A stretch of 64,000 nucleotides of DNA from Thozetella sp. PMI_491 (taxonomy: Eukaryota > Ascomycota > Sordariomycetes > Chaetosphaeriales > Chaetosphaeriaceae): NCBI GenBank assembly GCA_021432635.1, contig MU270076.1:159787-223786 (forward strand), read 5' to 3'. This document shows, in pieces, positions 19,594 to 42,173 of this stretch. The notes beneath the pieces are model-generated. The model did no database searches. It saw only the letters and a program-made list of their open reading frames with translations, and had not been told where the DNA came from. A program made the translations under genes and the position numbers. Each line of letters opens with the position of its first letter. Within the stretch, counting starts at the first letter, position 1.

Positions 19594-21311
19594 ATGGCTC
19601 CTCCGACCAAAGCCAAGAAGAGGGTCTACCTCAACTTCTTTGACCACGGCTGCGTGGGATCCCACATGAGCCCCGGCCAATGGCGGTATGTTGTTCTCCC
19701 CCAGAACCTATGGACAAAAGAGGAAAAGAAAAAAAAAAAAAAGCCCACCATCAAGTTCGTTGCTCTAATCATTCCTTCCTTGCCCCTCATAGAGACCCCA
19801 CGGACAAGGGCACAACAAAAGACACCCTAGAGTATTGGCTCAACCTGGCCCGCCTGGCCGAGCGCGGCAAGATCAGCTTCATCTTCTTCGCCGACAGCTA
19901 TGCGACGCACGAGATCTACGGCGGCACGCCCGATGCCATGATCCGCGCGGGCGCCCACTTCGCCACCATCGACCCCTTCACCGTGATCCCCGCCATGGCC
20001 GCCGTGACCAAGTCGCTCGGCTTCGGCGTGACCGCCTCGACGAGCTACCTGAATCCCTACACCCTCGCCCGCACCTTCTCCAGCCTCGACCATCTCACAA
20101 ACGGCCGCGTGGCCTGGAACGTCGTGACGAGCTGGAGCAAGAGCGCGGCCAAGGCCCTCGGCTATGAGGACGTCGTGCCCCACGACGAGCGCTACGCCGT
20201 GGCCGATGAGTACCTCGATGCCATGTACCAGATGTGGGAGAGCGGCTACGCCCCCGATGCCCGCGTGTTCGACCCCGAGACCCGGGTGGCTTTTGATCCC
20301 GAGAAGATCAAGAGGATCGAGTTCCACGGTAAGAAAGCTCCCTTGCTCCATTTTCCTCCTTGACAGGAGCTAAGACGAGACGATAAAGGAAAATACCACA
20401 ACGTATCAGGCGTCGCACCCCTTCACGCCTCCCCCCAGCGGACGCCCGTGCTCTTCCAGGCCGGCACGTCCAAGGCCGGCCGCGCCTTCGCCTCCAAGCA
20501 CGCCGAGGCCGTCTACGTCGGCGGCCTGATCCCCTCGCAGACCAAGGACTCGATCGCGCAGATCCGGGCCGACGCGGCGGCGCGCGGGCGCGACCCGGCC
20601 AGCCTCAAGTTCTTCGTCGGCATCTCGCCCATCCTGGGCCGGACGCTCGAGGAGGCCGAGGCCAAGTACGAGCGCGCGCGCGAGAACGCCAGCCCCATCG
20701 GCGGCCTGGCCCAGTTCTCGGGCTACACGGGCATCGACCTGTCGCGCTTCCCGCTGGACGAGCCGTTCGAGCTGACCGACAAGCCCGGCGACGCCGCCAC
20801 GCACACATTCCTCGAGAACTTCAACAAGGCCAGCGGCACCAACGAGAAGTGGACCCCGCGCAAGCTGGGCGAGAAGATGGCGCTCGGCGGCTTCCACCCC
20901 GCGCCTGTCGGCACCGCCGAGATGGTGGCCGACGTGTTCGAGCAGTGGGTGGACGAGGCCGACGTCGACGGCTTCAACATTGCCTACATCACGACGCCGG
21001 GCAGCCAGGAGGACATCGTCGACCTGCTCGTTCCCGAGCTCCAGAAGCGCGGCCTGATGTGGGAGGACTACGCCGTCCCCGGCGGCTCGCTGCGCGAGAA
21101 CCTGACGGGCGTCCCGGGCTGCAAGGAGCTCCCTGCCGACCACTACGGCCACAAGTTCAAGTGGGGCACCGGCTTCGAGGGCGACTCGGTCGAGGCTTTC
21201 CGGGCAGCGGAGGCAGAGAAGGAGAAGATGGATGTCGAGACCAACGGCGAGAAGACTAATGGCGCCAATGGCAGCAATGGCACCAACGGCACCAACGGTG
21301 CCAAGGCATGA
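19594..21311 (+). CDS. FMN-dependent monooxygenase, NtaA/SnaA/DszA family (bacterial luciferase-like)
   Basis: Three exons (19594-19685, 19793-20328, 20389-21311) with 107- and 60-nt introns give 516 residues. The spliced start MAPPTKAKKRVYLNFFDHG is typical of the NtaA/SnaA/DszA branch. It is followed by DPTDKGTTKDTLEYW, FIFFADSYATHEIYGGTPD, GFGVTASTSYLNPYTLART, NGRVAWNVVTSW and QRTPVLFQAGTSKAGRAFA, all landmark blocks of the TIM-barrel fold. These enzymes oxygenate N- or S-containing organic compounds using FMNH2 supplied by a separate reductase. The C-terminus ends in an Asn-Gly/Thr low-complexity tail. Intron 1 carries a long A run. A flavin-reductase-like gene lies 5.8 kb downstream, and the neighbouring gene is a convergent hydrolase. 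Confidence 0.9.
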
Positions 21312-21624
21312 AAGTACTTTGGCGGCGTTCGCGAGGGCCGGTTGTTTACTAGCAAGTAGATTGTACAAAGCATGATCCCGTCGTTTATAATACAGGCATG
21401 ACCCAGGCGTACACAAAAAATCACAAGTTCGAGCTTCCCAAATCGAGGCCATCTCTGCCCGAGAGCAGCACCCCTGGAGTGTAATGCGGTAAAAATGCGC
21501 CCAGGCCGAAGCTGGTGGGGGCCTCCCTTATTAGATCAGGCCCAGTCTCTCCGGAAGCGAGCCGAAATGTGCTTTCATTTGGATGCAAGAAGCTCATCTC
21601 CTCTGGTCTCTCGAGTTTGATTAT

Positions 21625-22557
21625 CTACAATGTGTTCTTGCCGATGTGTTCCGTCCAATGCTTTGCAATGCCCTCGACGTCGTGGTTCAGCGAGAAGTTG
21701 GCTCCTTTGACTTCCACCGCCGGGATGTCGGGACGAATCTTGGTCAGGTTCTCGAAGTGATCCCACTGCATTAAACGTTAGCCACGTCCAAGCGTCTGCT
21801 GCATGCCTGCTCGGTTTGATTTGGGGGGGGGGCGGAGGGGCTGCCTCACCAGGACATCGTCCCTTGCGCACATGGCCAACACGGGCGTCTTGATCTCCCG
21901 CATGAGTTGCTCTTTGTCCTGGTCCCAGATAGCCCCGTAGATCTGATTTCGCCCTTTCCACGCCCGCACGTGGTCAATGAGCTGCTCGTGATGGAGCTCG
22001 AGGTTTCCCACGCCCATGTTGCCGAGGTAGTCCCACGTCTTCTGGAGATGCGAGCCGTCTGGCACTGGTTGGTTGAAAGGGGCGAAGAAGCGCTCCTTCA
22101 TCTTCGCGCGCTCTTCCGCAGACATGACGCTAGGTCCGACTAGGGCGACGGAGGCAATGCGCTCGGGGTACAGGACGGCCATCTGCACTGCAAGCGACGC
22201 GCCGCTGTGGTGGCCGATGACGTGGAAACGCTTCTTCTCCGGGCCGGCGATCCCAACGGTCTCAAACGCAGCCATGAAGAGCTCGACGTACCATCTCGTA
22301 CCTTTGGAGAGTATCTCCTGGATGTCGGCCTCGGAAGGGTCAAAGGAACCGCCAAAACCCGGCATATCAGGCGCATAGCAGGTATATCCTCGAGAAGAGT
22401 AGTATTCTATGAGCGGGACGTACGACACGGATGAGGTAGCGGACTTATGTAGCATAACCAGAATTTCGCCATTCGGTGTCGCCGGGACGGCGCGGCGATA
22501 ATGAAGCTGGCCTGAAGCCGTGTCGACGTAGGCCTTTTGGATCGTGGGCGCAGACAT
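21625..22557 (-). CDS. Alpha/beta hydrolase with GHHSG elbow
   Basis: Two exons (21850-22557 and 21625-21765, 84-nt intron) give 282 residues. The alpha/beta hydrolase fold is clear: GEILVMLHKS at the oxyanion-hole strand, YAPDMPGFGGS, FHVIGHHSGASLA at 112-123, YPERIASVALVGPS, TPVLAMCARDD (candidate acid Asp233 or 234) and LNHD (candidate His264). At the nucleophile elbow the pattern G-x-Nu-x-G places His117, not Ser, at the catalytic position, with Ser118 beside it. Catalysis may therefore differ from a classic serine hydrolase. The gene is convergent with the FMN monooxygenase and lies downstream of the permease on the same strand, so it may act on a product of the oxygenase. The substrate is unknown. 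Confidence 0.82.
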
Positions 22558-22859
22558 AATGGGTTAACCGCTGGGCTAGCGCGATTCTGTGGGCGTGGAG
22601 GAGGGACAACAGACAAGATGCCATCAAGGAGACGCTGCAGGCCCTGTACATATATAGGCCACAACTAGCAAGGCATCGGGTCGGGACTCATTCCGTGCGG
22701 AGATACTGTCGAGGGCGGAAAACCAAGGAGACATGGGAAATTCATTATTTGGGATTATGAAGCTATCTACAAATGTCTATTGTGCTCCTTCCGTCTTGCG
22801 GCTAGGCAGATAATTAAAGATCAAGCAAGCCCAAACCTAAGCAGCCAAGTCCTCTATAT
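22558..22859. other. Hydrolase promoter region
   Basis: A short gap between the hydrolase start and the stop of the permease, both on the minus strand. A TATA element is present; no gene. Confidence 0.55.
22650..22656 (-). promoter_or_regulatory. TATA box of the alpha/beta hydrolase gene
   Basis: TATATAT on the minus strand about 95 bases before the start codon at 22557. Confidence 0.45.
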
Positions 22860-25254
22860 TCAGTGACCGCTCTTTTCGGCAACATCCGACGCAGCAGCCT
22901 TCGAGTCGGCTCCAGCAACCTCCTCGTCGACAGACTTCTCCGAGAAGCCCTCGACAACAGTGGTTGGCTCGTAACCCTCGAGATACTCTAGGATGTAGGG
23001 CTTGCCCGGGGGCGGGGAAATCAGGCAAATAAGATAGTACACGAGGGCACCGCCGCAGAAGCCGGTAATCCAGGTCTGCATTATCACCGCTGCATTAGCC
23101 ATACTGTTCGAGCACATCTAGTATCGGAAAGTTCTACTTACGACTTGGAAGGCGCGAGTCCAGCCAATGTCCAGGCCAGTAGCACCACCCATGGCCACAA
23201 CAAAACCGGCTAAGAATGTGTCAGTGGGAAAGGACTCCTGCGGCGCGCTATGCGGAGATTAAACTCACGGAAAGATGGCCAGACTACCAGGGCCCAGGCG
23301 CCGAGGGCACGCAAGTTCAAACCATAGGTGTACCAGTAAATGGAGCTGCGGTCTCCACGCTGCGATCATTTTTTGTCAGCAACTGCACATCTTTCTCAAT
23401 GCCGTAGCTAGGCGGTACTCACGTAGAGATCGGGGATCTTCCACTTCAACCGTCGGACAGCCCAGCTGCATTGTCGTTAGCGCACAGCCCGCATGATTGC
23501 TAAACAAGATGAATACTTACAAGTCAATAGCGTTGATTCCAGCTAGCGGGGCGACGAACATCTAGAGAAACAGCCGTCAGTCATCGAACTGAATTTCCTA
23601 AAGGGCGGTTACTTACTCCGAAGCTGTTGAGGACAGAGATGAAGAGACCGGGCTGGTTGACGAATCGCCACGGCTGGATTAGGTCTGTGTGGCCTGTAGT
23701 CAGCTCCTTTTTCTATCAGCCAGAGAATATGAGTTCGCTCACAGCCGACGAGGCACATAATCAAGGAACCACGAGTGACGTCGATGTACTTGGGATAAAA
23801 GGCCGCGAGATCCATTCCGCTAGAAATAAAATTAGATTGATTGTCTGAGGGCCCAGGTTAGGGGTACAATTGAGAACATACCAGCTGACGCTATTCTGAA
23901 CCAAGTTGATGACAACCTGGCTAGCGAAGAACCCGACACCAGCGAAGAAGCATCCCGCACGCGCAGAGGAGCTGTAGTTGCGCTGCAGGATGGTCTGTAG
24001 CAGGAGAATCGGGTTCCAGATCGGGGTGCCGTACATATCCTTGACGGCACTGGTGGTCGCAAAGCCCAGGGTGCAGAAGATGAGGCAGATAATGGGACCA
24101 GTAACGATCTGGTTCCACCAAACGACGCTCCGGCTGGTTTCAGTTAGCATTTTGATACCCACGATGGAGAAGCCGGCGAGAATAGAGCTAACCTCTTGCT
24201 GAACCTAGTCCAGTCGGACTGGCGAATGGCAGCGCCGGTCCAGCTTCCTGCGACACTTGACATGGCCTGGAGGATACGGAATGATCGCTCGCTACCCGAG
24301 ATCTCCTTGGACGGGGGCAGGAAGGTGACGCCGTGGTTGCTCGACAGAGCCCAGATGAATAGGCCAACCATGGTCACCATGGCCATGGCCTGTGTGATGT
24401 AGATGAAGGGCTGGAGGCGGTGGGGGTGGATGAACATCATGGACGTGAAGACGATGATGTAGCAGATAAACCCAATGAGCTGCTGGGTCGTGATGCCAGC
24501 CGAGGCAGGGAGCGTGTTGGCCATGCTCTGGAAGCTGGGGAAGATGCTAGACAAGATGACGCTGAAGGCGAGGCCACCCCAGTAGGACTGGATTCCGAAA
24601 CTGAAAGAGCGCGTGAGAAAGCGTTGGCGATTGCGGCCTAGGCGCAAGAGGGCTCCCTGTAGGTTCACTTACAAGATGAAGTTGACGAAGAGCTTCAGCA
24701 TGATGACAAAGTAGGCACCATACATTCCGAAGGTCGCACGGCTCATCAAGGGGAAACCGAGGTGGTAACGAATCTACGCGACACAACAGTTAGCAACCCG
24801 TCCGGTCTGCCCAAGACGGGGCATCTAGAGACTTACACCGGCCTCGCCAGAGAGGGTGGCGACGATGGCACAGAGAAGACTACCGACGAAGACACCGCCG
24901 ATGGTGCCGGCGGCGTCGAGGCCGTTGGCCAGGTTGGAACTTCCCAAGCTCCATGGGGTCACGTTGGCGCCCACAGCAGCCCAGTAGCCAAAGTAAGCCA
25001 TGAAGGAGTAGTTCTGGTGCTCCTTGGGGACGGGCAGGATATCACTATCGAGAAGCCAAAGTGTGAGCGCCTCGCAACGGACAAAGACACGCGGGTAGAA
25101 TGGGGGAGGGGGCTCAGCGCTAGGCCAGCAGGTGTTTGGAGGGGTGCACGAACGGGTTGGCCCATCTGTCGTCCTCGGCGCTATCCTTGTTCACCACCAG
25201 CGAACGGAAGGTTCGAGGAAGCCTGGGCTTCGGGAGGCTGTCGAAGAAACCCAT
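22860..25254 (-). CDS. NCS1-family nucleobase/allantoin-type permease
   Basis: Twelve exons on the minus strand: 25154-25254, 24837-25044, 24673-24773, 24193-24600, 23882-24133, 23743-23819, 23617-23693, 23521-23561, 23423-23465, 23269-23359, 23142-23209 and 22860-23075. Every junction keeps the frame and the product is 560 residues. The NCS1 pattern is clear: RWANPDILPVP before the first helix, WSLGSSNLANGLDAAGTI, GIRYHLGFPLMSRATFG, IRQSDWTRFSKSRSV, YIDVTRGSLIMCLVGC, VAPLAGINAID with FWAVRR, and about 12 hydrophobic segments. NCS1 carriers import purines, pyrimidines, allantoin, hydantoins or related vitamins with H+ or Na+. The 5' splice site GTTCGT of intron 1 is weak, and intron 6 is only 49 nt. 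The substrate cannot be fixed from sequence; the neighbours suggest it feeds the oxygenase. Confidence 0.88.
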
Positions 25255-27064
25255 GTTGCGCGAACTCGCAGTCAACGAGCAGCAATTTGGGAGAGCCAAA
25301 AAAAAAAAAGGTTTTGGGAACCCGGTGAGGATCGGCGAGGCGGGTGCAGGCGCGAGGGGAGCAGGCGAGAAAGAAGCAGAGGCTTTGTATACTTTCGCCG
25401 CCGAGTCAGGCGCGGGACAACTTCACCTAAACTCGAGTCGAAGGTGCTGGACCACAAGCGAGAAGTCGAGAGTGGGGGGAGAGGGCGGATTGCAGGGGAT
25501 AATAACTGATTTCATCCGTGGAAGGGCGGAAGGCACGACGAAGAACCACTCTACTGGGTCTCTTAGTCCCTGATGCAGCTGCACGCTGCCCAGCATTTTG
25601 GCATGGCTTACAGATTGCCTATTTTCCTCCATGTCGCGCCCCCCCGATGGAACCCTACCTAACATCCGGTCGTAGCTGATTGCGGCAGGGATCCCATCTT
25701 CCCGCAAGAGCCATGATCCCCGCGCTAGCGGGGGGCGAGATGGGCCCTCCGTGCTACCCATCAGAGGGGGAGCTGCTAGCTAGCATCATGGACAAAGCCC
25801 AGTCTGTGCTCTCTCCTTATCCCCTTCGTCTATTGTTCGCGTGGTTGGGGCCGCCTCTGCGTGTTGCCATTACGTTGCGGCAGCTTGAGCAGCTCGGCGC
25901 TAGCTCTGTCGTGATTGGGACTCGGCGTCAAGCTATCACAGCTGGCCTGAGTTATCAGTGGAGTTCCCCGGGTTTTGGGCTCTGGTTTACTCACGCCTCC
26001 ACCAATGCAGCGTCCGGACCTCTCTGGACCAGGGCCACCGGTGTTATCATAGGCCTGGGAGGGGCCACTAGCCTGGTCCCCTGCCAGGCGGTCGACCCTC
26101 CTTGTACACCCGCTAAGGCCACACCACCGCCGGCCCCCCCAAGCCTCCCTACGGAGCACTGATAGGGGCCTCCGAATAAGCCAGTTGGCGCTACGCCCGG
26201 GTGGACGGCTGTCACCCGTGCCTGCCGATTCTCCTATGATCCCAGCGCCATGCGTTCCAGAACAACGGGTCGCCATGCCCAGGCGCGGGAGCACTACAGA
26301 CCCCGATGAGAGCGTTCACCGACGCGGCCGGCACGCGCCAAGCATGCCTCAAGTGCCTTCTCTACCTTAGCTCGCTCCCTCCCCCGTAGAGCTCAGGGAC
26401 TCTTCAGCTCGAGTCTGGGGTCGGGGCGTTGGCGTGGCCGGGCCCTTGCCGCCACCCCACCCCGACTACCCGTCGGGAGGCGGCTAGGACACCATCACAC
26501 GTTGTTTGTGCACACACGACGGCTTCCGTACCTTTTCCCAGCACCGACCACCAGCAGCCGCCTGCCTTGCCTGCCAACCATGGTCCCCAGCACACGCTCT
26601 GCACGCTGCCGGCTGCATGCCGCACGGCCGGTTGACCAGAACTAGACACCTGCAGCTGATCAGGAAATGGCACACGCGCTTGAGAGCCCCGACTGCCGTC
26701 CGGTCTAAAGTCCCAACGTCGCACCCGCTTTATCGTATTGCCACACCATCGGGATCTGGCATCCGGGGCCAGAGAGGTGGGGAGGAGAGGGGGGCTTGCA
26801 CTCGTTGCATTGAACAATCTCATATCGACAAGACCGGCGGCCGCGGCGATAGATTAGAGCAAACACAAGCCAAGAGATGTGTGCATCGGCCCGGGCTCGC
26901 TGCAACATAGTACTATACTACTGGTAGCCCCTGTAAAGCCCACTGCCTAATAGCTGGTGGCCTGCCCGCGCGCTCCTAACGAGCCGGAATACCAGGCAAG
27001 TAGAACACAAGACCCAAAGAGGGACCAGACCACACACCACCTTCTGACGGCCCCCACGCGCATC
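25255..27064. other. Divergent intergenic region, permease / flavin reductase
   Basis: 1.8 kb between two divergent start codons. No gene supported: frames of 130-160 codons (for example 25680-26162) have no recognisable features. This is the likely shared control region of two cluster genes. Confidence 0.5.
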
Positions 27065-28235
27065 ATGACGACAGTAAAATCAGACCTGCCCGTCGAGGCA
27101 TTCGACAAGGAGGCGCTGGTACAACGTGAGCGCCTCCCCAGACTGCGTGGCGGTTCACCCAGTGCAGGTCGCTGATGGCCCCCTTCCAGGAAACCCGCAC
27201 ACGGACTTCGCAGCAACGGAGGCGAGCCGGCCGGACTACAGCCAGGAAATGAGCTGGACGCTGTCCAAGACACCTGCGCCCAAGTGGCAGGCCGGCGAGG
27301 GCGCCATTGACGAGCACTGGAAGGACCAGAAGTTCGTCACCATCGACCCGTTCGAGCCCGGCCGGCCATCGAACCTGAACTACAAGCTCTTCGTCTCGAC
27401 CACCGTGCCGCGGCCTATCGCCATCGTGAGCACCATCACCGCGGACGGGAAGACGAGGAACCTGGCCCCGTTCTCGTACTGGCAGAACGTCTGCTCCGAC
27501 GTAGGTTGCCGCTCCCTGTGTTCCTTCCTCGGGTGCGGGAGAGTGGAGAGGAGACGGGGTCAACGGAGGAACGGGGGGGCGTGGCCGTCGGGAAAAGTAT
27601 TGCTAACGGCAGGGTAGCCGCCGCTGTATAGTTTGTCATTATGCGGAGAGGAACCCAATGACACGCTCAAGAACATTCTGGAGACGAAGGAGTGCTGCAT
27701 CAGCATGACGAGCGACTGGCTGGTCGAGTGAGTTCTGCTACTTCCGATCCCGAAGGGAGCGGAACCCACGCCCGTCTCGCCTCCCGCTGACCCTGGCCCG
27801 CCCAGAGCCATGAACTTCACCTCCATCAACACGCCTCGCCACATCTCCGAGTGGGAGATCGCGGGTCTCACGCCGCGCCCCAGCGAGGTCGTGAAGCCGC
27901 CCTTCGTGGCCGAGTCTCCCTTTTCGGCCGAGTGCAAGCTCTACTCCCACCATGACGTGCACAGCCGTGTGCATGGCAGACGTACCGCGACTCTAGTGAT
28001 CATGGAGGTGCAGAGATTCCACATATGGGACGATGCGCTGCGAGCCGACAAGGCCACGGCGCTGATGGAGAAGTTGCGGCCTGTCTTTCGTTGCGGCGGC
28101 ATCACCTACGGGACCGCGTTCGACGGGTTCGAGCTTCCGCGGCCCGAGGCATTTAGAACCGTAAGGCTCGAAGAGAGAGTGAGCAAGATATTGGAAGGTG
28201 CATGCGAGAAGGAGCAGAGCGAGCCGACAGCCTGA
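27065..28235 (+). CDS. Flavin reductase-like protein (FMN-binding split barrel, RutF/NtaB type)
   Basis: Four exons (27065-27125, 27190-27500, 27618-27727, 27806-28235) give 303 residues. After an N-terminal VQRNPHTDF block, the flavin-binding domain starts with NYKLFVSTTVPRPIAIVST, then LAPFSYWQNVCSD, PPLYSLSLCG, KECCISMTSDWLVEAMNFT and ECKLYSHHDV, ending with LRPVFRCGGITYGTAFDGF. This is the fungal branch of the flavin-reductase-like domain (DIM6/NTAB). The class reduces FMN with NAD(P)H and hands FMNH2 to oxygenases, or binds flavin in other ways. The luciferase-like monooxygenase at 19.6-21.3 kb is an obvious candidate partner. The start ATG was chosen because its short exon splices in frame to the conserved block. 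Confidence 0.87.
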
Positions 28236-28681: not shown

Positions 28682-30234
28682 TTACATCCTCACCACCAGC
28701 TTCTTTCCTTTGAGATCTCCTCGCTTGAGCATCTCTAGGCCCTCCTGGATGATCTCGAACCCGCCGTCGAGGAAGTGGATGTCCGGCAAGACGAGCATCT
28801 CGGCCTCGAGGAGCGCATTAAGCTCGTCTGCGTAAGACCGGCTGCTTTCGTCCAGGACGAACCTCTTCATCTCGACCGTGTGCGCCGTCACGTTCTCCGG
28901 GATAGCCTGCGACGATGACATGAAGGCGAGGGGGGCAAAGTGCACAGGCCGCTCGGCAGATACGGCCTGGAGCACGAGGGCCGCCGTCTTGGCGCCGACG
29001 AGGTCGATGGCCCGGGTGATGTGGCCGCCCTTGGTGGCCTCCTTGATAGCGTCGACAATCTCCGCGTCGGTCTTGCCATCACGGACGACGACATGGGAAG
29101 CGCCGAGCCTCTCGGACAGTGGCTTGGTGGAGGCCGAGTTGACGGTGATGACCTTGAGGCCAGCCTGGGACGCGACCTGTGTGGCGAACTGGCCCGTCGA
29201 CGTTGAGCCGCCCCAGATGAGCAGCCACTCTTCGTCCTCCGACTCAGAAGTAGGGTCAGCCGGCGTAGCCTTTGCCTTTGCCTCTGGCTTCTCCGTCTCG
29301 GCCGCCGCCTCCGACTTTTGTTCGGACGTTTCCTCCGACGTGGCCTTCGCTTCCGGCTCGGCAGCCTCAATGTCATCGACATCGGCCATCTCGAGGTCCT
29401 GAGAGGGCATGCGCACGTTGAGCCATTTCCAAAGAGTCATGCAGGCCGTCAAGGCGGGCACACCGAGGCAGGCAGCACTCTCAAAGGGGATGGTGTGAGG
29501 GATCTTGGCGACAGTGTGCGTCGGGACGACGACCAGTTCCTGAAAGCAGCCGGCGCGGACGTCCTTGTAGTAGGTGCTCGTCCAGACCTTGTCGCCGGGG
29601 GCGATGCCGGTAACATCTTTGCCGACCTTCTCGACGATCCCCGACATCTCGCGGCCAGTGACCTGCAGGAAGCATTAGTAATCAGGTAGACGAAGCAAGC
29701 CCGGAGGGGTGAGCGGGGGGATTACAAACTTACCCAGGGAAAGGCAGGAAGACAAAAGTTGTAGTCCACCGACTTCCAGTCGATGGGGTTGAGGCCGACG
29801 TAGCGGCTGCGGATCATTACCTCGTTGTCTCCCAAGGCAGGTATCGGAAAGTCGGTTCGGATTTCGTACTCTCCTTTGCTGGCCACGACAAACGCCTTCT
29901 GGGCGGTTGGCTCGGGCACTTCGACCGGGATCTCCTCGACAGTCAGCCGGAGCTTCTTCTCGGGGGTCGAGATGGTGACCAGCTCCGGACGGAGGCCGGC
30001 GTCGATGACGCTGGCGCGACGCTTCTTGGGGGTCGGCTTTGCCGCCGTCTTCGTAACCGAGCCGCTGCGTATCCTCTTGAGAATGACTCGGAGGGCGTCG
30101 AGGTTCGCATGCTGGCGCATCCTGACGGGCCCAGAGGCCGTCTGCGTGCGCACGTCGCCACTGCCCATCTTGATTTTGGGCTTGGAGACTGCTGGTTGCA
30201 GCGAAGGGGGCGGAACGGAGGCTATCTCGGCCAT
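28682..30234 (-). CDS. Zinc-free MDR oxidoreductase (quinone/enoyl-reductase-like) with acidic insert
   Basis: Two exons (29734-30234 and 28682-29662, 71-nt intron) give 493 residues. The catalytic domain reads KAFVVASKGEYEIR, GLNPIDWKSVDYNF, PWVTGREMSGIVEKVG, GDKVWTSTYYKD and HTIPFESAACLGVPALTA; the cofactor site is WGGSTSTGQFATQVA (GGSTSTG at about 318-324). No zinc-binding cysteines are seen, so it belongs with NADPH-dependent quinone or enoyl reductases such as ToxD/LovC relatives. Two oddities: about 100 Lys/Arg-rich residues precede the domain, and an Ala/Glu/Lys-rich insert of about 50 residues (260-312) sits between the substrate and cofactor domains, making it much longer than the usual 340-370. 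It diverges from the AtuA-like gene. Substrate unknown. Confidence 0.83.
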
Positions 30235-31571: not shown

Positions 31572-33512
31572 ATGGCCCCCGTCGCCAACCGCCCGGCGCG
31601 CATCCAGAACATCTCGGGCTCGCCCGTGGACCGCCGCGATGCCCTCGCCAAGGCGGTCGTCCGAGACGAGCCCGTCGACGTCTTCGTCGGCGACTGGATG
31701 TCGGAGCTCAACATGCCCAAGCGCGCCTACGACGTAGCCAACGGCCTGGGCATCGGCTACGAGCCGACCTGGCTCGAGGCCCTGGAGCCGGCGCTCGAGA
31801 ACATCGCCAAGAAGAAGGTCAAGGTCGCGGGCAACGCCGGCACAGTCGCCACGAAGGAGCTCTTCGACCTGACGGTAGAGCTCGTCAAGAGCAAGGGGCT
31901 TGACCTGACGGTCGCCTGGGTGGAGGGCGACGCTGTGCTCGACCAGGTGAAGCTGATGCGCGGGGAGGGTCACAAGTTCACCAACCTCACCACCGGCCAG
32001 GCCCTCGACGACTGGGGCTACGAGCCGCTCTTTGCCCAATGCTACCTGGGCAGTTGGGGCATCGTGCAGGCCTTCCGGGCCGGCGCCGACATTGTCGTGT
32101 GCGGCCGGGTCGCCGACGCCGCTCCCATCGTCGGTGCGGCTGCGTGGTTCCACGACTGGGCGCGCACCGACTTCGACCGGCTGGCCCGGTCGCTGATAGC
32201 CGGCCACCTGATTGAGTGCTCGACGTACGTGACGGGCGGCGACTTCTCGGGCTTCAAGAGCCTGGACTGGGACAAGATCCATGACCTCGGCTACCCCATT
32301 GCCGAGATCGACATGGAGGGCGACGTCGTCATCACCAAGCCCGAGGGCACCGGCGGCATCGTGAGCGTCGAGACGTGCACGGAGCAGCTGCTGTACGAGA
32401 TCCAGGGCATGTACTACATGAACTCGGACGTGACGGCCGTCATCGACCAGGCCAAGTTTGAGCAGATCGGGCCCGACCGCGTCCGGCTGTCGGGCGTCAC
32501 GGGAAGGCCGCCGCCGCGGACGACCAAGGTCGGCCTCACGGCACCCGGCGGCTTCAAGGCCGAGGTGCACTGGTCTCTCGTCGGCCTGGACATCGAGGAG
32601 AAGGTCAAGATGGTAGAGAAGCAGATCATCGCCAGCTTCGGCCCGGAACGCATGAAGCGCTTCACCAACTTTAGCCTCAAGGTCTACGGCTCCGTGCCCG
32701 AGGACCCGCGGAACCAGGATTCGGCCACCGTCGACCTGCGTTTCCTCGCCGAGGCCAAGGAGGAGGAGGCATTCGCGGCCAAGGAGTTCATCCGCCCAGC
32801 GCTGGATTTCATCATGCAGAGCTTCCCTGCCGGCACCGTGAACCTGGGCGGCGGCGCCCACACTCCCGTAAGCATCTCCCTCGCCTTCCCCCCCCCCCTT
32901 TCGTTTCTCTTTATTTATTTCTCTCTTCCCTCTCTCTACCCCGCCACATCTGCTTTTCTTCAATACTCACCGCTAACCTGCTTATTTCTTTAGTTCCAAG
33001 AGTACTTCCCGACCATCATCCCGCAGCCGACCGTCACGGTGCACTTCTCGAAGCCAGAGCTCCAGGACATCGTGGTACCGCCACCCGAGGAGACCATCGA
33101 GCACGTCTTCGACCAGCCTTCGTACGAGACCAAGGACGCCGTCCCGCTGCACACGTTCCGGCCGACCACGCGCGCCCCTCTCGGCCACGTCGTACTAGCA
33201 CGAGCCGGCGACAAGGGCTCCAACTGCAACGTCGGCTTCTTCGTCCGCCACGACGACGAGTGGGACTGGCTGCGGTCCTTCCTCAGCACGCAAAAGCTCG
33301 CCGAGCTGATGGGCGAGGACTACATTGGCCAGAACATCGACCGCATGGAGTTCCCCAACCTGCGGGCCGTGCACTTCCTGCTGCACAACCACCTCGACCG
33401 CGGCGTCACGGCCAACGCCACGCTCGACACGCTCGGCAAGTTCATTGCCGAGTACATTCGCTGCAAGCCCGTCGAGGTCCCCAAGGCGTACCTGGCCAAG
33501 GGCAAGGTGTAA
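31572..33512 (+). CDS. AtuA-like protein, DUF1446 plus DUF4387
   Basis: Two exons (31572-32867 and 32994-33512; 126-nt CT-rich intron) encode 604 residues. The N-terminal part carries VFVGDWMSELNMPKRAYDV, KVAGNAGTVATKELFDL, GQALDDWGYEPLFAQCYLG, DIVVCGRVADAAPIVGAAA and IECSTYVTGGDFSGFK, the DUF1446 (AtuA) pattern. The C-terminal part holds LARAGDKGSNCNVGFFV (about 500-515), the DUF4387 signature. In bacteria AtuA belongs to acyclic terpene utilisation, but the chemistry of this family is not established, and fungal copies are uncharacterised. In bacteria the two domains are often separate proteins; here they are fused. The position inside a catabolic gene set suggests a role with CoA- or acid-linked intermediates, which is inference only. 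Confidence 0.88.
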
Positions 33513-34843
33513 GCCAGATGGGATGTAGATTTACCCCTTAGACTCTGACGAGGACCTTGTCGCCGCTCCAAGGTACTCGCTCGTGGCGGAGGGCTTGCCT
33601 GGCTCTCCCTGTACTTTACCAGGTCAACTGAGACTGCGACTTAGCCACGGGCCAGGTCAACTGGACTATGAATAGCATCCGCGTATCTAAGGCAGTTGAA
33701 TTAAACAGTTAAACTCGTCTATGCCCACGCAGACAAACGTGGTCTTTCTTCCTGGCGATATAGGCTACTTGCCGGGGCACTCCGGTCCCCCCTACATCGG
33801 CCTACGTGCAGCACTTTGCAACTCCACTCTCATGGAGTCCTTTATCTTCCCGAGTACGAATCCACTTTGTGCTTAGCACCGGTTCGAGGCGATAAATGCC
33901 GTTACCTCTGTAAATATCTACGCGCGGAAGTCCGCATCTGGTTCGATTAAGTTCTCGAGTGAGAACAGTGCGTGCGAGGTCTGCAGGTGGCGAGAAAGCA
34001 ATTGCTGCGCAAGCCAAAAGGAGCATTATAGATTTGATTTGATAGGCCTTGTACAGTATTAAGTACCTAGGCAAGCTAAGTAAATATTAGATAGAAAGAA
34101 ATGGCCCCTGTGCTAGCTCGTGGCACTGTGTGAAAATTACCTTGACAGCATCGATCGCCAAGCGTCCAGTGCTTCTCGAGCCATGGCTTAGTGAGTCAGA
34201 TGACCCGAGCCGTTTTCAGTTAGGCGGTGTGGGCGCCTAAAAATGGCCCGCGGCGTGGCTGGGCCAGCGCGGTATATAGGGGAATGTCAAGTACTGCAGG
34301 TGCTGGAGCGTGTGACTGTGGTTGGTCCTCCTTTCGCCACGGGCGTGGAAATCGCCGCCGGGGAGCACGCCCCGAACTGGCTCACCCAACGGCGAGCGGC
34401 GTTGGGCAGGCCATGTCATAACTACTACCACATACCCTTGATACCGTATCTCATTACCTACCGGGCCGGGGAAACCCGTCCAGATAAGAAGATTTGCGGA
34501 CACGAAATTCGCAACCTCGTGGGTGCGAAATGCGAGTGGAGTCGGGTTGGAGGCGCCGATGACCGGGCGTCCCCTCCCGCCTCTGACCCTTTTTGGCACG
34601 CGTGCACAAATGTGGTACAATTGGGGGTGACTAGCAAAGTGGTACGGCATGTCGACGAGCGCGTCATCCACTCATGGCTCCCCGCAGCACCCCGCGTTCA
34701 CTAAAAGGCGACCCTGTCAGGCCCAATGAGGCGCACTCCCTTTGTATTTCCGGAAGCCTGGTTGCCCCTACCTTCACCCCACCGCTCGTCTTATCGAGCT
34801 ATCGCTCATTTCGCCGCTGTATCCCGCTCAAGGTCTAGCTCCC

Positions 34844-34866
34844 GGGGGGGGGGGGGGGGGGGGGGG
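34844..34866 (+). repeat. 23-base poly-G tract
   Basis: Twenty-three consecutive G residues. The tract could form G-quadruplex structures and is a likely site of length variation or assembly error. Confidence 0.85.
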
Positions 34867-35004
34867 TGTGCTCCATAGATAAGGAGTCAGGCTAGGCGAT
34901 CCGTCTCAAGATAGCGGCTAGATCTCGACTCAAGGTGGCAAAGGCTCCAGCGGGCGGTGGTGCTGTAGCGGCTTTCAGAGCAGCCCTGTGGTTTTGGTGC
35001 CTGC

Positions 35005-35039
35005 CCTATCCGCCGTGCCTGCCCCTATCCGCCGTGCCT
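35005..35039 (+). repeat. 16-bp direct repeat, two copies
   Basis: CCTATCCGCCGTGCCT occurs at 35005-35020 and again at 35024-35039, spacing 19 bases. It lies about 280 bases upstream of the Zn2Cys6 gene and contains CCG triplets, the half-site recognised by many Zn2Cys6 regulators. Whether it is a binding site is unknown. Confidence 0.6.
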
Positions 35040-35316
35040 ACTATGTACCCTGCCCGCCCTGCTCTGCCTGCCGGTCTTGCCTGCCCCCCTCCCCCCGCCG
35101 TGCTGTTCTGTTTGGGTTAGCAAAGACTAAGACGAAGGGGGGGTTCCCTCCCCCAGCCAAGGTCCCGGCCAAGGTCCTCTCAGTGCCGGCAGATGGCGCA
35201 CCAGAAACCCTTTCCTTCCTTCCACACCCCTCCTCTCTCCGATACCTCACCTCTGTGCCCCTGTACTGCTGGATGAAAATCCCAATTGCCGTGCCGCCAG
35301 TGCCCTCCCCGAGATC

Positions 35317-38089
35317 ATGAGTGCTGTGAGCGCTGTCACGCCGGCCTCGACCATCGTCGAGGCTCCTCCGTCGGCCGTCACGGCCGTGTCCCCGCCCGAG
35401 AAGGCGCGGCCGGCGAAGCGGTACGTTCAAAAAAAAAATTACCCCAGCCCATCTCCCCCGCGTCGCACCGCAGCCGTCGAACGGCAGAACTCGGCATCGG
35501 CCTCCCCCTCCCCCGCCATGCTCGATCGCGACGGGCCTCAACGCCCCGGCGCCTGCGGTGACTGCTGGCGCCCACGGGCACGAGCTCTACGCACATCCAT
35601 GCCTCCAATGCCGTGCAGACGATACTGACCCGTCTCTGCAGGGCCCGCGTTGCCGTCGCCTGCCAGCGGTGCAAGAGCCGCAAGCAAAAGTGCGATGGCC
35701 GGCAGCCATGCTCCAACTGCCGGGACTTCCAGGCCAACTGCCAGTACATCTCGTCCAATCCCAAGTCGATGATCCTGCACCGGGAGCAGCAGTCAGTCCG
35801 GGCGGTTGAGGAGCGTGTGGCGGAGCTGGAGTCTATCTTGCTCAGTGGAGGTATCAACGCACTCAAGGACCGGAGGCAGTCCTTAAATGCCGGGCTTGAA
35901 GGTGTGACTTACCAATCAGATCTCCGTCCAGACTCACCCCGCGATGCGCGCCCTAAGGCCATCTCCAGCCCGCGAACCCGCATGGAGCGGATGGCCGAGC
36001 CTGGCAACTCGCCCCACGCCGCCCTCACCACCGTGGTGGAGATCCTGCGCGACCTGTCCCTGGAGGCGTCGGGTGGCTACATCGGGGCCTCGTCCCAGAT
36101 TACCATGGGCCGCATGATCAGCTCCATCGTCCAGGCCAAGTCCTGCGCCTCCGAGGCGTCTAAGAGCGAGGATGAGGAGCACCTCAGCCCCAAGTCCGCG
36201 TCGAACCCGCCGCCTTCTCTAGATGGGGGCATTGAGCTATCTCAGATGCCGGCCGACATCGCCGAGAAGCTCTTCCGTGCATATATCCGGCACATCTCCA
36301 CGAGGTGGCCGCTCCTGCAGACGCCCTTCATCGGCCGGCTGCACAATGAGCGGCTAAGCGTAGAGGACACCTTCCTGTGAGCTCTTCTGCCCTCCCCTTC
36401 CTCGGGACTAACCTCTTATCCGGAGGCGCTGACCTCTGGTAGTGTGACGGTCCTGCATCTGGTCTATGCCATCGGTGGTCGCTTCCTGGAGACAACGGGA
36501 GAGACGGGCAACTTCTATCCCGAGCAGCACTACGAACAGGCACTACGCCATCTGGACGAGATATGCAGATATCACGACATGAGGACGGTCCAGGTCCTCC
36601 TTCTGTTTTCAATATACAGTCTGCGTTCGCCGCGCGGACCCGGCGCCTGGACCTACGTTGGCCTGGCCATGAGGAACTGCATCGAGATGGGGCTCCACCG
36701 GAAGACGGGCAAGAAGAGGTCAATTTTGGAGAACGAGATGCGAAAGCGGATATTCTGGGTGTGCTACTGCCTTGACAGGCAAATCTCCATCATCCTAGGG
36801 CGGCCATTTGCCATTTCAGACAGGGACATTGACGTTGAGGTGAGCAGTCCTCCGCAGCCGCTTTGCTATTTTACAGGGCGCGAGAGGCGGGCTAACAGCG
36901 CATAACTAGCTGCCGCTAGACGTTGACGAAGCACTCGAAGATACCGTCGTGCTAGAGTCACTACAGGAAAGTGCAAGGACGCCGCCGTTCGGGTCGAAAC
37001 CTCGCGACAAGTCGACATCAATGACTGGATTCATCTACATCTGCCGGCTGAGGATGATCGAGTCCAGGATACAGCAGAGCATCTATCGTGTGGACCACAG
37101 TTCGCCCGCGACAAAGGACGACGTCGAGAAGTTCATTCAGCAGCTGGACGAGTGGAGGGAAAGCATGCCTATCGATGCTAGGAACGGAGAGGTGCCGCGG
37201 CTCGAAACCATGATTATGGATGGTTATGACCACTACGTGAGTTCCATCTCGCAACTACAGTTCCTGAGAAACGGAGATACTGACTCGATAAACAGATGGT
37301 CTACTACTACAAGTGTATGCGGTTCCTTCTTCACCCCGTGATTCTGTCCGGGGACCTGGCGGACACCCGGTTCCTCAAGACGTGCGCAGCTGCCTGCGGT
37401 GGAGTCTGCCAGACCTACAAGAAACTCCACCAGATCGTCCCTGTTGGATTCTCAGTGATGGCCCTCTATTCGGTCTTCCTTGCGGGTGAGTCATTTTCTA
37501 GCTCGTGCCCTACAGCGCCGCGATGGCGAGGCTGACGACGTCTACAGGACTCACTCTTCTCTACTGCACCTGGGCGTCGCCCAAGGAGGTGTTCAGCATC
37601 AGCACGTCCAACGACATGAATGCCTGCAGCATCGTGCTCTACATCATCACGGAGCGGTGGACGGGCGCCAAGAAATACCGGGACGTCTTTGAGACTATCA
37701 AGCAGGCCGTGCTTGACTCGATCGAGGAGGGCGAGTACGAGCCGCGGCGGGTCATCAAGAACTTGCGTCCGGGGCTCGAGGCTGCCTTCTCGACATTGGA
37801 CCCGACCGAGGAGGGCCAGGGCGAGTTCTCGGCACTGGTTACCGACATGGCGGGTGGGCCGAGCATCGTGGTGGCTGACGGTACGACGCCTGGAGGGGGG
37901 CCAATATCTGGGGGCGAATACGACGGCCACGGAGGAGGCTTCACCTTTTCGATGCCCCTGGATGGCATGCCATTTGACTTCCACGATCCGGACACGTTCG
38001 GACCTGTGGATATGGCCTTGGGAACGCCGAGCAATGACTGGATGGTGCGTTCAGGGCTGGAGGGATATGGAGATCATTTGTCGACTTGA
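35317..38089 (+). CDS. Zn2Cys6 fungal transcription factor
   Basis: Six exons (35317-35420, 35642-36376, 36443-36839, 36910-37236, 37296-37485, 37548-38089) encode 764 residues. The zinc cluster has Cys42, 45, 52, 58, 61 and 68 (C-x2-C-x6-C-x5-C-x2-C-x6-C), followed by a leucine-rich coiled-coil linker (VRAVEERVAELESILL). The middle region reads FRAYIRHISTRWPLLQTPF, LLFSIYSLRSPRGPGAWTYVG and RIFWVCYCLDRQISIILGRP, the fungal-specific transcription factor domain. The first intron, 221 nt, lies just before the zinc cluster; reading through it gives a stop, so splicing is required. The C-terminus is Gly/Asp/Phe-rich and could be an activation region. Its place among catabolic genes suggests it is their pathway-specific regulator. 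Confidence 0.88.
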
Positions 38090-38278
38090 GACGCGAGGGA
38101 CCAACGGGTGTTCAGGAAAAGGGCGTCGCCTAATGAGTTACGAGACCGCAAAGTGGGCTGCAAGTTTCCGGTGTTAATGTGCATATGAGGTCGGCCATAT
38201 GGCGTGGGTTGGGGGCTTGGTTTTCAAGGAGGCCAACGCTTTGTATTTTATATCATTTGGGAGCGTATCAACACCTAC

Positions 38279-39429
38279 CTAGTTGAACTGGAGAAACAAC
38301 GGCTCGCCCTTCTCCCATCGTAGGATATTGTCTACCTGGATTCCATACCACCCAGGCAAGACGTCTTTCTCGACGTAGCCCATGTGTGGGGACAAGAGCA
38401 CTTGGCTCCTCCCCTCGACGCCCCATTTGGTGGTCCGCCACCTGCTCTGCGCCGGCAACGGCTCCAGCTCGAAGACGTCCACGGCCGCCGAGCGGATCTT
38501 TCCCTGCTCCAGCACGGCTAGCAAGTCTTCTTCCACAACCAGGGGCGCGCGCGACGTGTTCACGAAGATGGCGTCCGGCTTGAGCAGGGCGAGGTCCGCG
38601 GCCGAGATGATGCCGCGCGACCGGGCCGACAGGACCAGGTGCACGCTGACGATGTCGGCAGTCCGGAACAGCTCCTCCTTGCTCACTGCCTTGAACGTCT
38701 TCTCGCCGTCGGGGCCGTCGGCAGGCAGCCCCAGGTTCTGGGCCGCCTTGTCGGCCAGCTCCTGCGTGAGGTTGGTGCTCCACGCCACGATCTTGACGCC
38801 AAAGGCCAGGTGAAGAATGCGCGCGACGCGCGCGCCGAGGCGCCCGAGCCCCAGGACGCCGACCGTCTTGCCGGCGAGGCCGAAGGCCGTCGTCGTCTGC
38901 CACTTGCCGGCCTTGACCTCGGCGTCGTCCCAGGCGATGTTGCGCGCCGCGCCCATGATGAGGGCGATAGCGTGCTCCGTCGTGCTGTCGGACCCGGACT
39001 GCGTCGGCCGGCCGGGGTCGGTGGCACCCGCTACAGGAATGCCGCGCTCCTTGAGGGCCGGCAGGTCAAGGGACGCGTTGCGCGTGCCCGTGGTCAGCAG
39101 GAGCTTGAGGTTGGGGAGCCGGCCGATGAGCTCCGCCGGGAAGGGCGTGCGCTCGCGCATTGTGCCTGGGAACGCGTCAGCGAGTATGTCACAGGGAAAG
39201 CGAGAGGGGCAGGTGGCAAGGAGCTGGCCGGCGCACATATGATATCGAACGGCTCGAGGCGCTTCACTAGCTGGTCTTTGACATCCTGGGGGGTGTCGGG
39301 GTGGTTATACGGGAGGAGGGTGTCCCTGAAAATGGTCACCTCATAGGTCGCCGGATCTAGTCTCTTGTAGGCAGATTCTGAGAGGTTCTGGTAGTCGTCG
39401 AGGACAGCTACCTTGCGCGAGCCGGGCAT
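38279..39429 (-). CDS. D-isomer-specific 2-hydroxyacid dehydrogenase
   Basis: Two exons (39237-39429 and 38279-39165; 71-nt intron with GTGCGC donor) give 359 residues. The N-terminus MPGSRKVAVLDDYQN and the TMRERTPFP, LLLTTGTRNASLD blocks are typical of a fungal branch of the family. The NAD-binding motif GLGRLG is at 170-175. Catalytic Arg270 (NTSRAPLV), Glu299 (DVFELEP) and His325 (LSPHMGYV) are all present, so the enzyme should be active. It would reduce a 2-keto acid to a D-2-hydroxyacid or the reverse. It ends 189 bases from the stop of the Zn2Cys6 gene in convergent orientation and shares a strand with the amidase. Substrate unknown. Confidence 0.9.
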
Positions 39430-39972
39430 CTTGTCTAAGCTTCTCGAGTCGCCTATGAGAGGAAAATGAGAATCGCTCCTTGAGCGGGCACAGAAGGTCC
39501 AGCGAGCGGCCGGCCAGAGTTATAGGACAAGCCGAAGGGTCTAGGAGAAACCTCAAGGTCCTGAGATGGAGGGGATCGATAATCAATGCGGTGCCGACTT
39601 GGCCGGCAATGCTTTCATCCGATGCAAAAGCTCCCTGGGCGCTAGTTTACCCGTGGCAGGACACTCGCACACGAGACACATGAGTCAAGCGACTTCGCTG
39701 CGTGGTGTGTAAGCCAGGACTGCCGCAAATCGGCGCGCAACTGAGGTCATTACCCCGCAATATGCCATGATGGAGACAGGCTTTAGCCCCCCCCCTTTCC
39801 CCCTTTTCTAAACTCCATAACAAACCTCCGCACGTAAACACTAGAACCTCAGGAGTATAACACGTCTCATTTTGTACATCCCCTTTGGTACGGAAAAGAT
39901 TATCTAAACAAAAGGCCCGGGACATTCTCTGCTATACAAGCCTAGGTTGCAACTCTATGGGGCCGGCCCGGT
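39430..39972. other. Intergenic region, dehydrogenase promoter
   Basis: No gene seen. It contains the upstream region of the 2-hydroxyacid dehydrogenase and the 3' flank of the amidase. Confidence 0.55.
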
Positions 39973-42173
39973 TCAGTTTCCGGCAGCCGCTTGCGCCTCT
40001 CCTTGGGCCGTAGCAATGACATCCAGCCATTCCTCCGGCCGCAGGCGCCCTCCGGGGTAGACATCGTTGAGGTATGTCTCTGTCTCACGCGCGAAGCTCA
40101 GAAGCTGCTCCTCGGCTCCCCACTCGCCTGTAGCCATGGCCGCGATCGGAATCTTGCCCTTCCCCTGCACAGGGTCGATGTAGCCGGCAGGGCATGTCAC
40201 AGCCGGAAGACCAGTGACGTTGGCGACCCACACATCTGCGGTGTTTTTTGTTAGCTATAGCACCCAGAAGCACCAGGAGGATAGGCAATATTGGGCGGGT
40301 AGCCTACAGGTCATGTTCATCATGGTCTTGTTCCCATCCGTGAACCCATGCGCCTGATCGCCCGGAGAGATCGGCCAGCCTGGCATAGGCGTTGTCGGCG
40401 TGAAAATGAGCAGGCCTGGATACTTCTTGAACAGGAAGGCGAGGTGGGACATCATGACCTGCCGCAGCTGCCCATACTTGAGAAAGTCGGTAGCGGGGGT
40501 TTGCGAACCAACAGCGACTAAGATTCGGTTGGGCGCGTTCATCAGCGAGAGCCAGCTGCTGGGGTCCTTGCTACGTGTCTTGGCCATATCGGCGACCTCA
40601 GTGAGGCACGTGGCGCTGTGGGCCAGAGCGCTCTCGCGCATATGTGGTAGAGAGATGTCGACAACCTCATACCCACCCTTGGAGGTAAGATGCGAGAGAG
40701 CTTTGTCGTAGACCTCTCGCACTTTGGGATCAGTCTTGGCGAGCCATTCCTTCCAGACGCCGAGATACTTCTTTGCGGACGGATCAGGAGGGGTGGAGAT
40801 GGCAAAAAGACCCTGCGTGCTGTCCTCCGGGTCAGGCTGGGACATGGTGCGGTACGCAATGGTCAGGTCAGACACGGTTGAAGCCATGGGCCCTATGGTC
40901 ATCACCGACGAGCCTGTGACGACGGTCCGACTGTGGCTGGTCTTAAGGCCATAGACCCCGCAGAAGGCTGGCGGAAGGCGAGTGCTACCACCTAAAAACA
41001 TTCACGGTTCAGTACCGTCTGAGTTGCGCCGGGTAGCAGCGTCTATGAGATTGTGCCAGACTGACCTCCATCTGTCCCTACCGCAATGGGAACAACGCCG
41101 CCGCACAGAGCGGAGGCCGCACCGGAGGAAGACCCTCCTGGATAGTACGACTTGTTATACCAGTTCGTTGGGGTTCCTGTACTTGGCTTCAAGGCATCGT
41201 CAGTTCTTGCCACCAACGTACAACCTGGCCCGCCTACAACTCACATTGCAGCCCGTAGTATCTGCGCGACGTCAGCAAGGCCCGAATATACATCACTTGG
41301 TCTCAGACACTTACCCATGCCGACCTCGTGCTGGTTCATCTTGCCTATCATGATGGCGCCGGCCTCTTCCAGCTTCTGGACCGGCCAAGTCGTAACCTCC
41401 TTGCTCGTCGTGAAGAACGGTTCCGACTTGTTCAGTTTCATGCCAGAGCTCGTCACATATCCCTTGACGTCCGTATCGTCCTTGACGCCAAAGGGAACGC
41501 CGTCCAACAGACCTAGTGGCTTCCCGGCGGCCCATCGCTCCGTGGAGGCCTTCGCAGCCGCCAGGACCTTCTCCGGATGGATGTGGATCCAGGCCACAGC
41601 ATACTTAGAGGGCTTGCTGATATCTCTCCGGACCAACGCTAGCAGCGCCTCGGTTACCTGGGAAGGCGTCACCTTGCCCCCCTTGTAGAGCTCATGGTAG
41701 TCGGCAACTGAGTGGAAGCGGCCACCAAGATCTGCAGGTTGGGGCGTTGTAAGCTCCGGGCCAAACTCCAGCATGCTATCAGAGCCATCTGACAGAGGAA
41801 TCACGGTGGGCTACCCGTGGATTAGCACCATTGAGTTAACCTGGAAATAGACAATGAAGCGAGCGAGCCTACATCTAGCCTCGGCAACTCCTTTTCGAGT
41901 CCGGGGACCGTTGCTGGCTTTCCGAATTTCGCATTGCTCCAGAGGAACTTTTGCAGAGACCCTAGACCAGTAACGCTAAGGAAACACAAGGTCAGTGGTC
42001 GTGTGCTGTGCCGCGACGCGTCCTGGAGTCGGCACTTACAGAGAGGCCGCAAGCACAAGAGGGTATCCCCGTATAGCCGGATTCTTGTCTTCCTCACCTG
42101 CGCTCAGCACCAGAGATGAGGCAGCAGCTTCCTTCGGAGTCGGGTAGTTTGCATAGCGACGCGAGCGAACCAT
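39973..42173 (-). CDS. Amidase-signature hydrolase
   Basis: Seven exons on the minus strand (42040-42173, 41873-41975, 41315-41810, 41245-41261, 41066-41186, 40308-40991, 39973-40235) keep frame at every junction and give 605 residues. The Lys-Ser-Ser triad is visible: Lys189 (GVPFGVKDD), the cis-Ser in GGSSSGAAS (about 270), and nucleophile Ser293 (TDGGGSTR), the last rebuilt by splicing. IMIGKMNQHEVGMD precedes the triad serines as in the family. Exon 4 is only 17 nt; without it DTTGCN is lost and the frame breaks. The class hydrolyses amide bonds of small molecules and related C-N compounds. No signal peptide. It is the last of the nine neighbouring catabolic genes. Confidence 0.88.

What the first reader, a model, noticed from the sequence alone, without database searches (positions are those of the whole stretch)
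19594..42173. Nine-gene candidate catabolic cluster resembling a fungal analogue of the Rut pathway
Nine consecutive genes encode an FMN-dependent monooxygenase, alpha/beta hydrolase, NCS1 permease, flavin-reductase-like protein, MDR oxidoreductase, AtuA-like protein, Zn2Cys6 regulator, D-2-hydroxyacid dehydrogenase and amidase. Role by role this parallels the bacterial Rut uracil operon: RutA luciferase-like oxygenase, RutF flavin reductase, RutD alpha/beta hydrolase, RutB amidohydrolase, a reductase and the RutG permease. Most families differ, though (NtaA/DszA oxygenase, NCS1 instead of NCS2, amidase-signature enzyme), and a dedicated regulator is added. A pathway opening an N-heterocycle or amide by flavin-dependent oxygenation would be new for fungi as far as I know. 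Adjacency and complementary chemistry are seen; substrate and co-regulation are inferred.
Basis: partly seen in the sequence, partly recalled or inferred. Interest (0 to 1): 0.82.

Follow-up and report, generated by a model that had tools for sequence, protein, structure and literature searches.

The report
Conserved fungal flavin-oxygenase and lyase cluster
A fungus carries a run of nine genes, at least six of which turn up together in other fungi, that looks like an uncharacterised degradation pathway in which a flavin enzyme oxidises a small imported molecule and an unusual lyase splits the product.

The parts
19594..21311 (+). G1: NtaA/DmoA-family FMN-dependent monooxygenase, 516 aa, exons 19594-19685, 19793-20328, 20389-21311
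   Evidence: TIGR03860 459.6 bits, cut-off 279.7; PF00296; contains deposited P0001; dioxygen motif F62-T111-N140xV142-A234-Y252
21625..22557 (-). G2: alpha/beta-hydrolase-fold protein, 282 aa, exons 22557-21850, 21765-21625; elbow GHHSG with His where the nucleophile Ser is expected
   Evidence: PF00561; identical to P0245; elbow GHH[S/T]G in the three sequences aligned, this one included
22860..25254 (-). G3: NCS1-family permease, 557 aa, 12 exons
   Evidence: PF02133 233 bits; TIGR00800 296 bits, below its cut-off of 353; identical to P0244
27065..28235 (+). G4: flavin-reductase-like FMN-binding protein, 303 aa, 4 exons
   Evidence: PF01613 90.8 bits; identical to P0241
28682..30234 (-). 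G5: medium-chain dehydrogenase/reductase (quinone or trans-enoyl reductase type), 493 aa, exons 30234-29734, 29662-28682
   Evidence: PF08240 and PF00107 in the exon-2 frame and in the deposited protein; GGSTSTG; deposited model is shorter (303 aa)
31572..33512 (+). G6: AtuA-family protein with C-terminal AtuA ferredoxin-like domain, 604 aa, exons 31572-32867, 32994-33512; proposed retro-aldol lyase
35317..38089 (+). G7: Zn2Cys6 transcription factor, 764 aa, 6 exons
   Evidence: PF00172 and PF04082; six-cysteine motif complete
38279..39429 (-). G8: D-2-hydroxyacid dehydrogenase, 359 aa, exons 39429-39237, 39165-38279
   Evidence: PF02826 153.5 bits; GLGRLG, NTSR, DVFELE and SPH stretches present
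39973..42173 (-). G9: amidase-signature hydrolase, 605 aa, 7 exons
   Evidence: PF01425 224 bits; GVKD, SSSG and GGGSTR stretches present, read as the Lys-Ser-Ser triad from general knowledge of the family

Best explanation
The locus is a fungal catabolic gene cluster whose conserved core is G1-G6. Shown: gene content, linkage of the six families in other Pezizomycotina, the dioxygen motif of G1, and the predicted fold of G6. Inferred: the NCS1 permease (G3) imports a small polar, probably nitrogen-containing compound. The flavin reductase (G4) supplies FMNH2 to G1, which oxygenates it, most likely through an N5-(hydro)peroxyflavin of the RutA/DszA type, cleaving a C-N, C-S or similar bond or hydroxylating next to it. 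G5 reduces an unsaturated product and G2 carries out a hydrolysis or hydration not needing a serine nucleophile. G6 then splits a beta-hydroxy acid by retro-aldol reaction, releasing acetate and an oxo-compound, as proposed for AtuA and named for citramalate lyase. In Thozetella the amidase (G9) may release ammonia, G8 may interconvert the 2-oxo and D-2-hydroxy acid, and G7 would be the regulator.
Against: The dioxygen motif and the oxygenase family are shared by enzymes acting on sulfides, sulfones, alkanes, chlorinated aromatics and riboflavin, so they do not fix the substrate. G6 has only 14% identity to 9evf_A over the structural alignment, a sequence profile finds that chain only at E 0.34, and active-site residues were not compared. 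G2 lacks the canonical nucleophile and may not be a hydrolase. No AtuA of PMI_506 is among the 120 listed. Linkage is patchy: several species appear in only one of the two clades. Same-contig evidence on megabase contigs is weak without locus tags. No regulatory motif was found. Linkage of G7, G8 and G9 in other species was not established.
Confidence: 0.5

Rival explanations
1. Detoxification or use of a sulfur-containing, halogenated or alkane-like compound: G1 works as a DmoA, DszA, HcbA1 or LadA-type oxygenase, and the permease imports something other than an N-heterocycle.
For: Best solved relatives of G1 are DmoA 371 bits, alkane monooxygenase 326, HcbA1 266, riboflavin lyase 264 and DszA 257, against 45 for RutA.
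Against: An NCS1 permease shares a contig with other core genes in three genomes including this one, and an NCS1 gene lies beside G1 relatives in C96. NCS1 carriers of known substrate take nucleobases and similar N-compounds (general knowledge, no call).
Confidence: 0.25
2. Terpenoid or branched-acid catabolism of the Atu/Liu kind, with G1 as an entry oxygenase and G6 acting on a CoA ester.
For: G6 is an AtuA-family protein. Around 22 bacterial AtuA relatives I scanned 46 of 124 neighbour ORFs; acyl-CoA dehydrogenase (6), enoyl-CoA hydratase (5) and carboxyltransferase (4) families recur.
Against: No acyl-CoA synthetase, dehydrogenase, hydratase or biotin carboxylase appeared among the window ORFs scanned, and in none of the 22 bacterial loci, some cut short by contig ends, did G1 match at E 1e-3.
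Confidence: 0.12
3. A true fungal counterpart of the Rut pathway: a pyrimidine opened by G1, with homologous downstream steps.
For: Role-by-role parallel; G1 shares 26% over 230 residues with RutA and its T105, N134 and V136 equivalents. RutD and G2 both lack Ser at the elbow, GHALG against GHHSG.
Against: Far below the RutA and RutD model cut-offs (55 against 498 bits, 25 against 239). No match to RutB, RutC, RutE, RutF or RutG better than E 0.08.
Confidence: 0.06
4. A biosynthetic cluster for a secondary metabolite.
For: Clustered genes with a Zn2Cys6 regulator; G5 resembles trans-enoyl reductases (listed relatives include ones named eqxC and TOXD).
Against: No polyketide synthase, peptide synthetase or terpene synthase domain among the ORFs scanned; permease, lyase and hydrolases suggest uptake and breakdown.
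Confidence: 0.07

Closest known systems
Bacterial Rut operon (E. coli rutABCDEFG, L020)
   Same: Two-component FMN oxygenase and flavin reductase beside an alpha/beta-hydrolase-fold protein, an amide-cleaving enzyme and a permease; T and NxV of the dioxygen motif shared with RutA
   Different: Oxygenase in another family (NtaA/DmoA), NCS1 rather than NCS2 permease (NCS2 recalled), amidase-signature rather than isochorismatase-like hydrolase, no RutC or RutE, AtuA-type protein and MDR added, fungal regulator
NtaA/DmoA/DszA oxygenases (DmoA 6ak1, HcbA1 6lr1, DszA 5tlc)
   Same: Family and dioxygen motif; G1 is over the TIGR03860 cut-off
   Different: The solved relatives have other named substrates; G1 sits with AtuA, MDR and NCS1
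Citramalate lyase subunits A and B (9erq, 9evf)
   Same: Fold of the main domain of G6; the PDB name of subunit A includes AtuA family protein
   Different: Two chains there, one fused protein here; 14% identity; substrate of G6 unknown
Atu pathway AtuA of Pseudomonas and Thauera
   Same: AtuA name and Pfam family; proposed acetate-releasing lyase (PMC9973270, PMC4847356, passages read)
   Different: No carboxylase, hydratase or acyl-CoA synthetase seen among the ORFs scanned here
Fusarium FDB1/FDB2 benzoxazolinone clusters (PMC4726666, PMC10512309, passages read)
   Same: Fungal clusters with amidase, hydrolase, transporter and Zn2Cys6 regulator that act on an N-heterocycle
   Different: There only the mbl1 (metallo-beta-lactamase) mutant of three deletions failed to hydrolyse the ring; the words flavin, permease, monooxygenase and DUF1446 do not occur in the 2016 paper's text

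Membership tests
Rut pathway | RutA-family monooxygenase | tested here: not met
   TIGR03612 55.4 bits, cut-off 498.3; 26% over 230 residues
Rut pathway | RutB, RutC, RutF, RutG homologues | tested here: not met
   No blastp match among G1-G9 better than E 0.08, no phmmer match listed
Rut pathway | RutD aminoacrylate hydrolase | tested here: not met
   TIGR03611 24.6 bits, cut-off 238.5; 22.6% over 133 residues, E 0.002
Rut pathway | Opens uracil or thymine | not testable with these tools
   Needs enzyme assay
NtaA/DmoA FMN monooxygenase | Score over the TIGR03860 cut-off | tested here: met
   459.6 bits, cut-off 279.7
N5-(hydro)peroxyflavin monooxygenases | Dioxygen motif F/L-T/S-NxV-A-F/L/Y (PMC8234197, passage read) | tested here: met
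   F62, T111, N140-V-V142, A234, Y252: T and NxV by alignment with RutA, the rest placed by the DszA residues of PMC11134501 and the alignment; conservation
N5-(hydro)peroxyflavin monooxygenases | Flavin-N5-oxide formed in turnover | not testable with these tools
   Needs spectroscopy
AtuA family | PF07287 over cut-off | tested here: met
   521.5 bits, cut-off 22.8
Citramalate lyase (CmlAB) | Fold of subunit A | tested here: met
Citramalate lyase (CmlAB) | Fold of subunit B | tested here: inconclusive
   9evf_B Foldseek prob 0.98, E 0.09, rmsd 3.0 over 107 columns
Citramalate lyase (CmlAB) | Recognisable sequence relation | tested here: inconclusive
   Profile E 0.34 for 9erq_A, no better than an unrelated designed protein; C-terminal domain alone found nothing at E 1
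Citramalate lyase (CmlAB) | Active-site residues and citramalate cleavage | not tested
   Coordinates not available to me
FDB1/FDB2 clusters | Metallo-beta-lactamase MBL1 or NAT1 acyltransferase | tested here: not met
   Neither family among the Pfam matches of G1-G9 and the flanking ORFs scanned

The most novel reading that the evidence does not exclude
A previously undescribed fungal pathway, spread over several classes of Pezizomycotina, in which an imported N-heterocycle or imide is opened by an N5-peroxyflavin oxygenase of the DszA/DmoA family and the carbon skeleton is finished by an AtuA-type retro-aldol lyase giving acetate and an oxo-acid: RutA-like chemistry reached from another branch of the oxygenases and joined to a lyase family not known to me in such a pathway.
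Probability: 0.25. Interest if true: 0.75.

Novelty: new variant of a known kind. Interest (0 to 1): 0.52.

Why it matters
To my knowledge most fungal DszA/DmoA-type monooxygenases have no known role, yet this 72-Mb genome alone holds about two dozen loci with the Pfam domain (my merging of the 38 exon-level matches; some may belong to other branches of the family). Tying one clade to an AtuA protein, an MDR reductase, a flavin reductase and an NCS1 permease gives a testable pathway. It also gives the fungal DUF1446/AtuA proteins, for which no solved relative reaches significance by sequence, a proposed reaction from the citramalate lyase fold.

Full report
What is there. The window lies in Thozetella sp. 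PMI_491 (genus in Sordariomycetes, Chaetosphaeriales), G000 contig C62, 159787-223786. I rebuilt all nine genes. Every model is open. Four are identical to the deposited proteins, G1 contains its deposited protein, and G5 differs from the deposited model. Pfam scans give the expected families for all nine (for G1-G6 I scanned the deposited proteins, for G7-G9 my models). Of ten long flanking ORFs, eight match unrelated families: DEAD helicase, SDR, Ras-type GTPase, beta-mannosidase (two ORFs), zinc dehydrogenase, mannosyltransferase, and a glycosyltransferase on the right; two have no match.

Is it a conserved cluster? I could not read other fungal genomes directly, so I used the organism name, the longest-contig length and, where given, the locus tag attached to each homologue; three of the contigs are unnamed and rest on equal length alone. 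The lists hold the best 120 of 6332 matches for the monooxygenase, 120 of 5160 for AtuA, and 120 of 264 for the joined query. 29 contigs, the window's own included, carry two or more of the six families. Counts by pair, own contig included: FMN+AtuA 11, FMN+MDR 17, AtuA+MDR 9, AtuA+flavin reductase 4, FMN+flavin reductase 3, NCS1+flavin reductase 3, hydrolase+NCS1 2. The 11 FMN+AtuA contigs are this one, eight named species and two unnamed contigs of 13.7 and 27.7 kb. Two species have consecutive locus tags: Verruconis gallopava PV09_08008/08009, with the flavin reductase at PV09_08012, and Elasticomyces elasticus LTR10_003225/003224. Looked-up linked species fall in Dothideomycetes (Verruconis, Elasticomyces) and Leotiomycetes (Coleophoma cylindrospora), beside the window's Sordariomycetes; in the eurotiomycete Penicillium taxi AtuA and MDR share a contig.

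The linkage is clade-specific. In trees of 120 sequences each, all 11 AtuA-linked monooxygenases fall in one clade of 34 (support 0.91), and all 15 AtuA proteins linked to a core gene in one clade of 44 (0.99). Eight non-self species are named in both clades, and in 8 of 8 both genes share a contig. Against this, several species are named in only one clade. Xylariales sp. PMI_506 has G1-G4 on one 4-Mb contig but no AtuA in the list, and Lophium, Amniculicola, Neoarthrinium, Periconia and others have a clade AtuA but, in the list, only monooxygenases outside the clade, on other contigs. The cluster is thus patchy. The monooxygenase-MDR pairing is wider: neighbouring locus tags (within 6) occur for monooxygenases outside the clade in Coleophoma crateriformis, Sporothrix thermara, Sporothrix stenoceras, Meristemomyces frigidus, Arachnomyces and at three loci of Capronia coronata, and for a clade member in Cylindrodendrum hubeiense.

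Own genome. The domains occur at many places: 38 exon-level matches for PF00296, 20 for PF07287, 8 for PF01613, 102 for PF02133, 105 for PF01425. An amidase or NCS1 gene next to something is therefore weak evidence alone. A second locus on contig C96 carries an NCS1 gene (40% to G3), two G1 relatives (42 and 50% over the longest pieces) and a Zn2Cys6-type gene related to G7. Weaker G7 matches (23-24%) also lie beside two AtuA paralogues, L005 and L006, so the C96 match cannot be ranked without a genome-wide search, which did not complete. Another locus, on C36, has an MDR gene only 27% alike to G5 and two G1 relatives.

The oxygenase. G1 belongs to the NtaA/DmoA family (459.6 bits, cut-off 279.7) and not to RutA (55.4, cut-off 498.3). 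The best solved relative is DmoA. [quoted passage not shown] PMC7662398 (passage read) says changes at RutA T105, N134 and V136 abolished activity, T105S excepted. G1 has F62, T111, N140-V-V142, A234 and Y252, kept in 114, 118, 118, 119, 120 and 120 of 120 relatives, T/S and Y/F counted together; most departures are gaps. This supports, but does not prove, N5-(hydro)peroxyflavin chemistry; the substrate stays open because the motif is shared across substrates.

The alpha/beta-hydrolase-fold protein. The nucleophile elbow is GHHSG in Thozetella and PMI_506 and GHHTG in Pleurostoma, and the His near the C-terminal end is not conserved. E. coli RutD has GHALG at the same place. Both lack the serine, which fits chemistry without an acyl-enzyme, but three sequences are a small sample and the alignment to RutD is distant.

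Comparison with Rut. Role by role the analogy holds for oxygenase, reductase, hydrolase-fold protein, amide hydrolase and permease, but only G1 is clearly related to its Rut counterpart (26% over 230 residues); G2 and RutD match at E 0.002, and nothing else comes below E 0.08. It may work partly like Rut; it is not a member.

Verdict. Real and conserved for six genes, plausible for the regulator, untested for the last two. Function of the whole is inferred. The class, a fungal catabolic gene cluster, is known; the combination was not found in the ten literature searches made.

Noticed in passing
G000:C96, L001 7499 to L002 6556: A second cluster in the same genome: NCS1 permease, two divergent FMN monooxygenases (42-50% to G1) and a Zn2Cys6-type gene related to G7, followed by ORFs of a berberine-bridge-type FAD oxidase.
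   Followed up: partly
G000:C36, L003-L004: Two FMN monooxygenases with an MDR gene, a TPP enzyme, a methyltransferase, a sugar-type transporter and an X-Pro-peptidase-like hydrolase within 20 kb.
   Followed up: partly
window 21625-22557: Alpha/beta-hydrolase-fold protein with His at the nucleophile position (GHH[S/T]G), the same in the two other sequences aligned; chemistry unknown.
   Followed up: partly
Capronia coronata A1O1_03360/03363, A1O1_08118/08115, A1O1_05058/05057: Three separate monooxygenase-MDR neighbour pairs in one species, suggesting repeated duplication of a two-gene module.
   Followed up: no
L036-L040: Bacterial AtuA relatives also in Chlamydiota and Neomarinimicrobiota assemblies; acyl-CoA enzymes recur among the neighbour ORFs scanned across the bacterial loci.
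   Followed up: no
G000:C19:872055-873051: A G4 paralogue (56-61%) near MFS transporter and multicopper oxidase ORFs, without a G1 match in the 20 kb fetched.
   Followed up: partly
window 28682-30234: Deposited model of the MDR gene lacks my N-terminal part and differs inside (303 against 493 aa; 51 gap positions in the alignment); one of the two models is wrong.
   Followed up: no
Fusarium verticillioides FVEG_05486 (PMC10512309, passage read): A flavin-reductase-like gene induced by benzoxazolinone and two other ring compounds; whether it is an orthologue of G4 was not tested.
   Followed up: no
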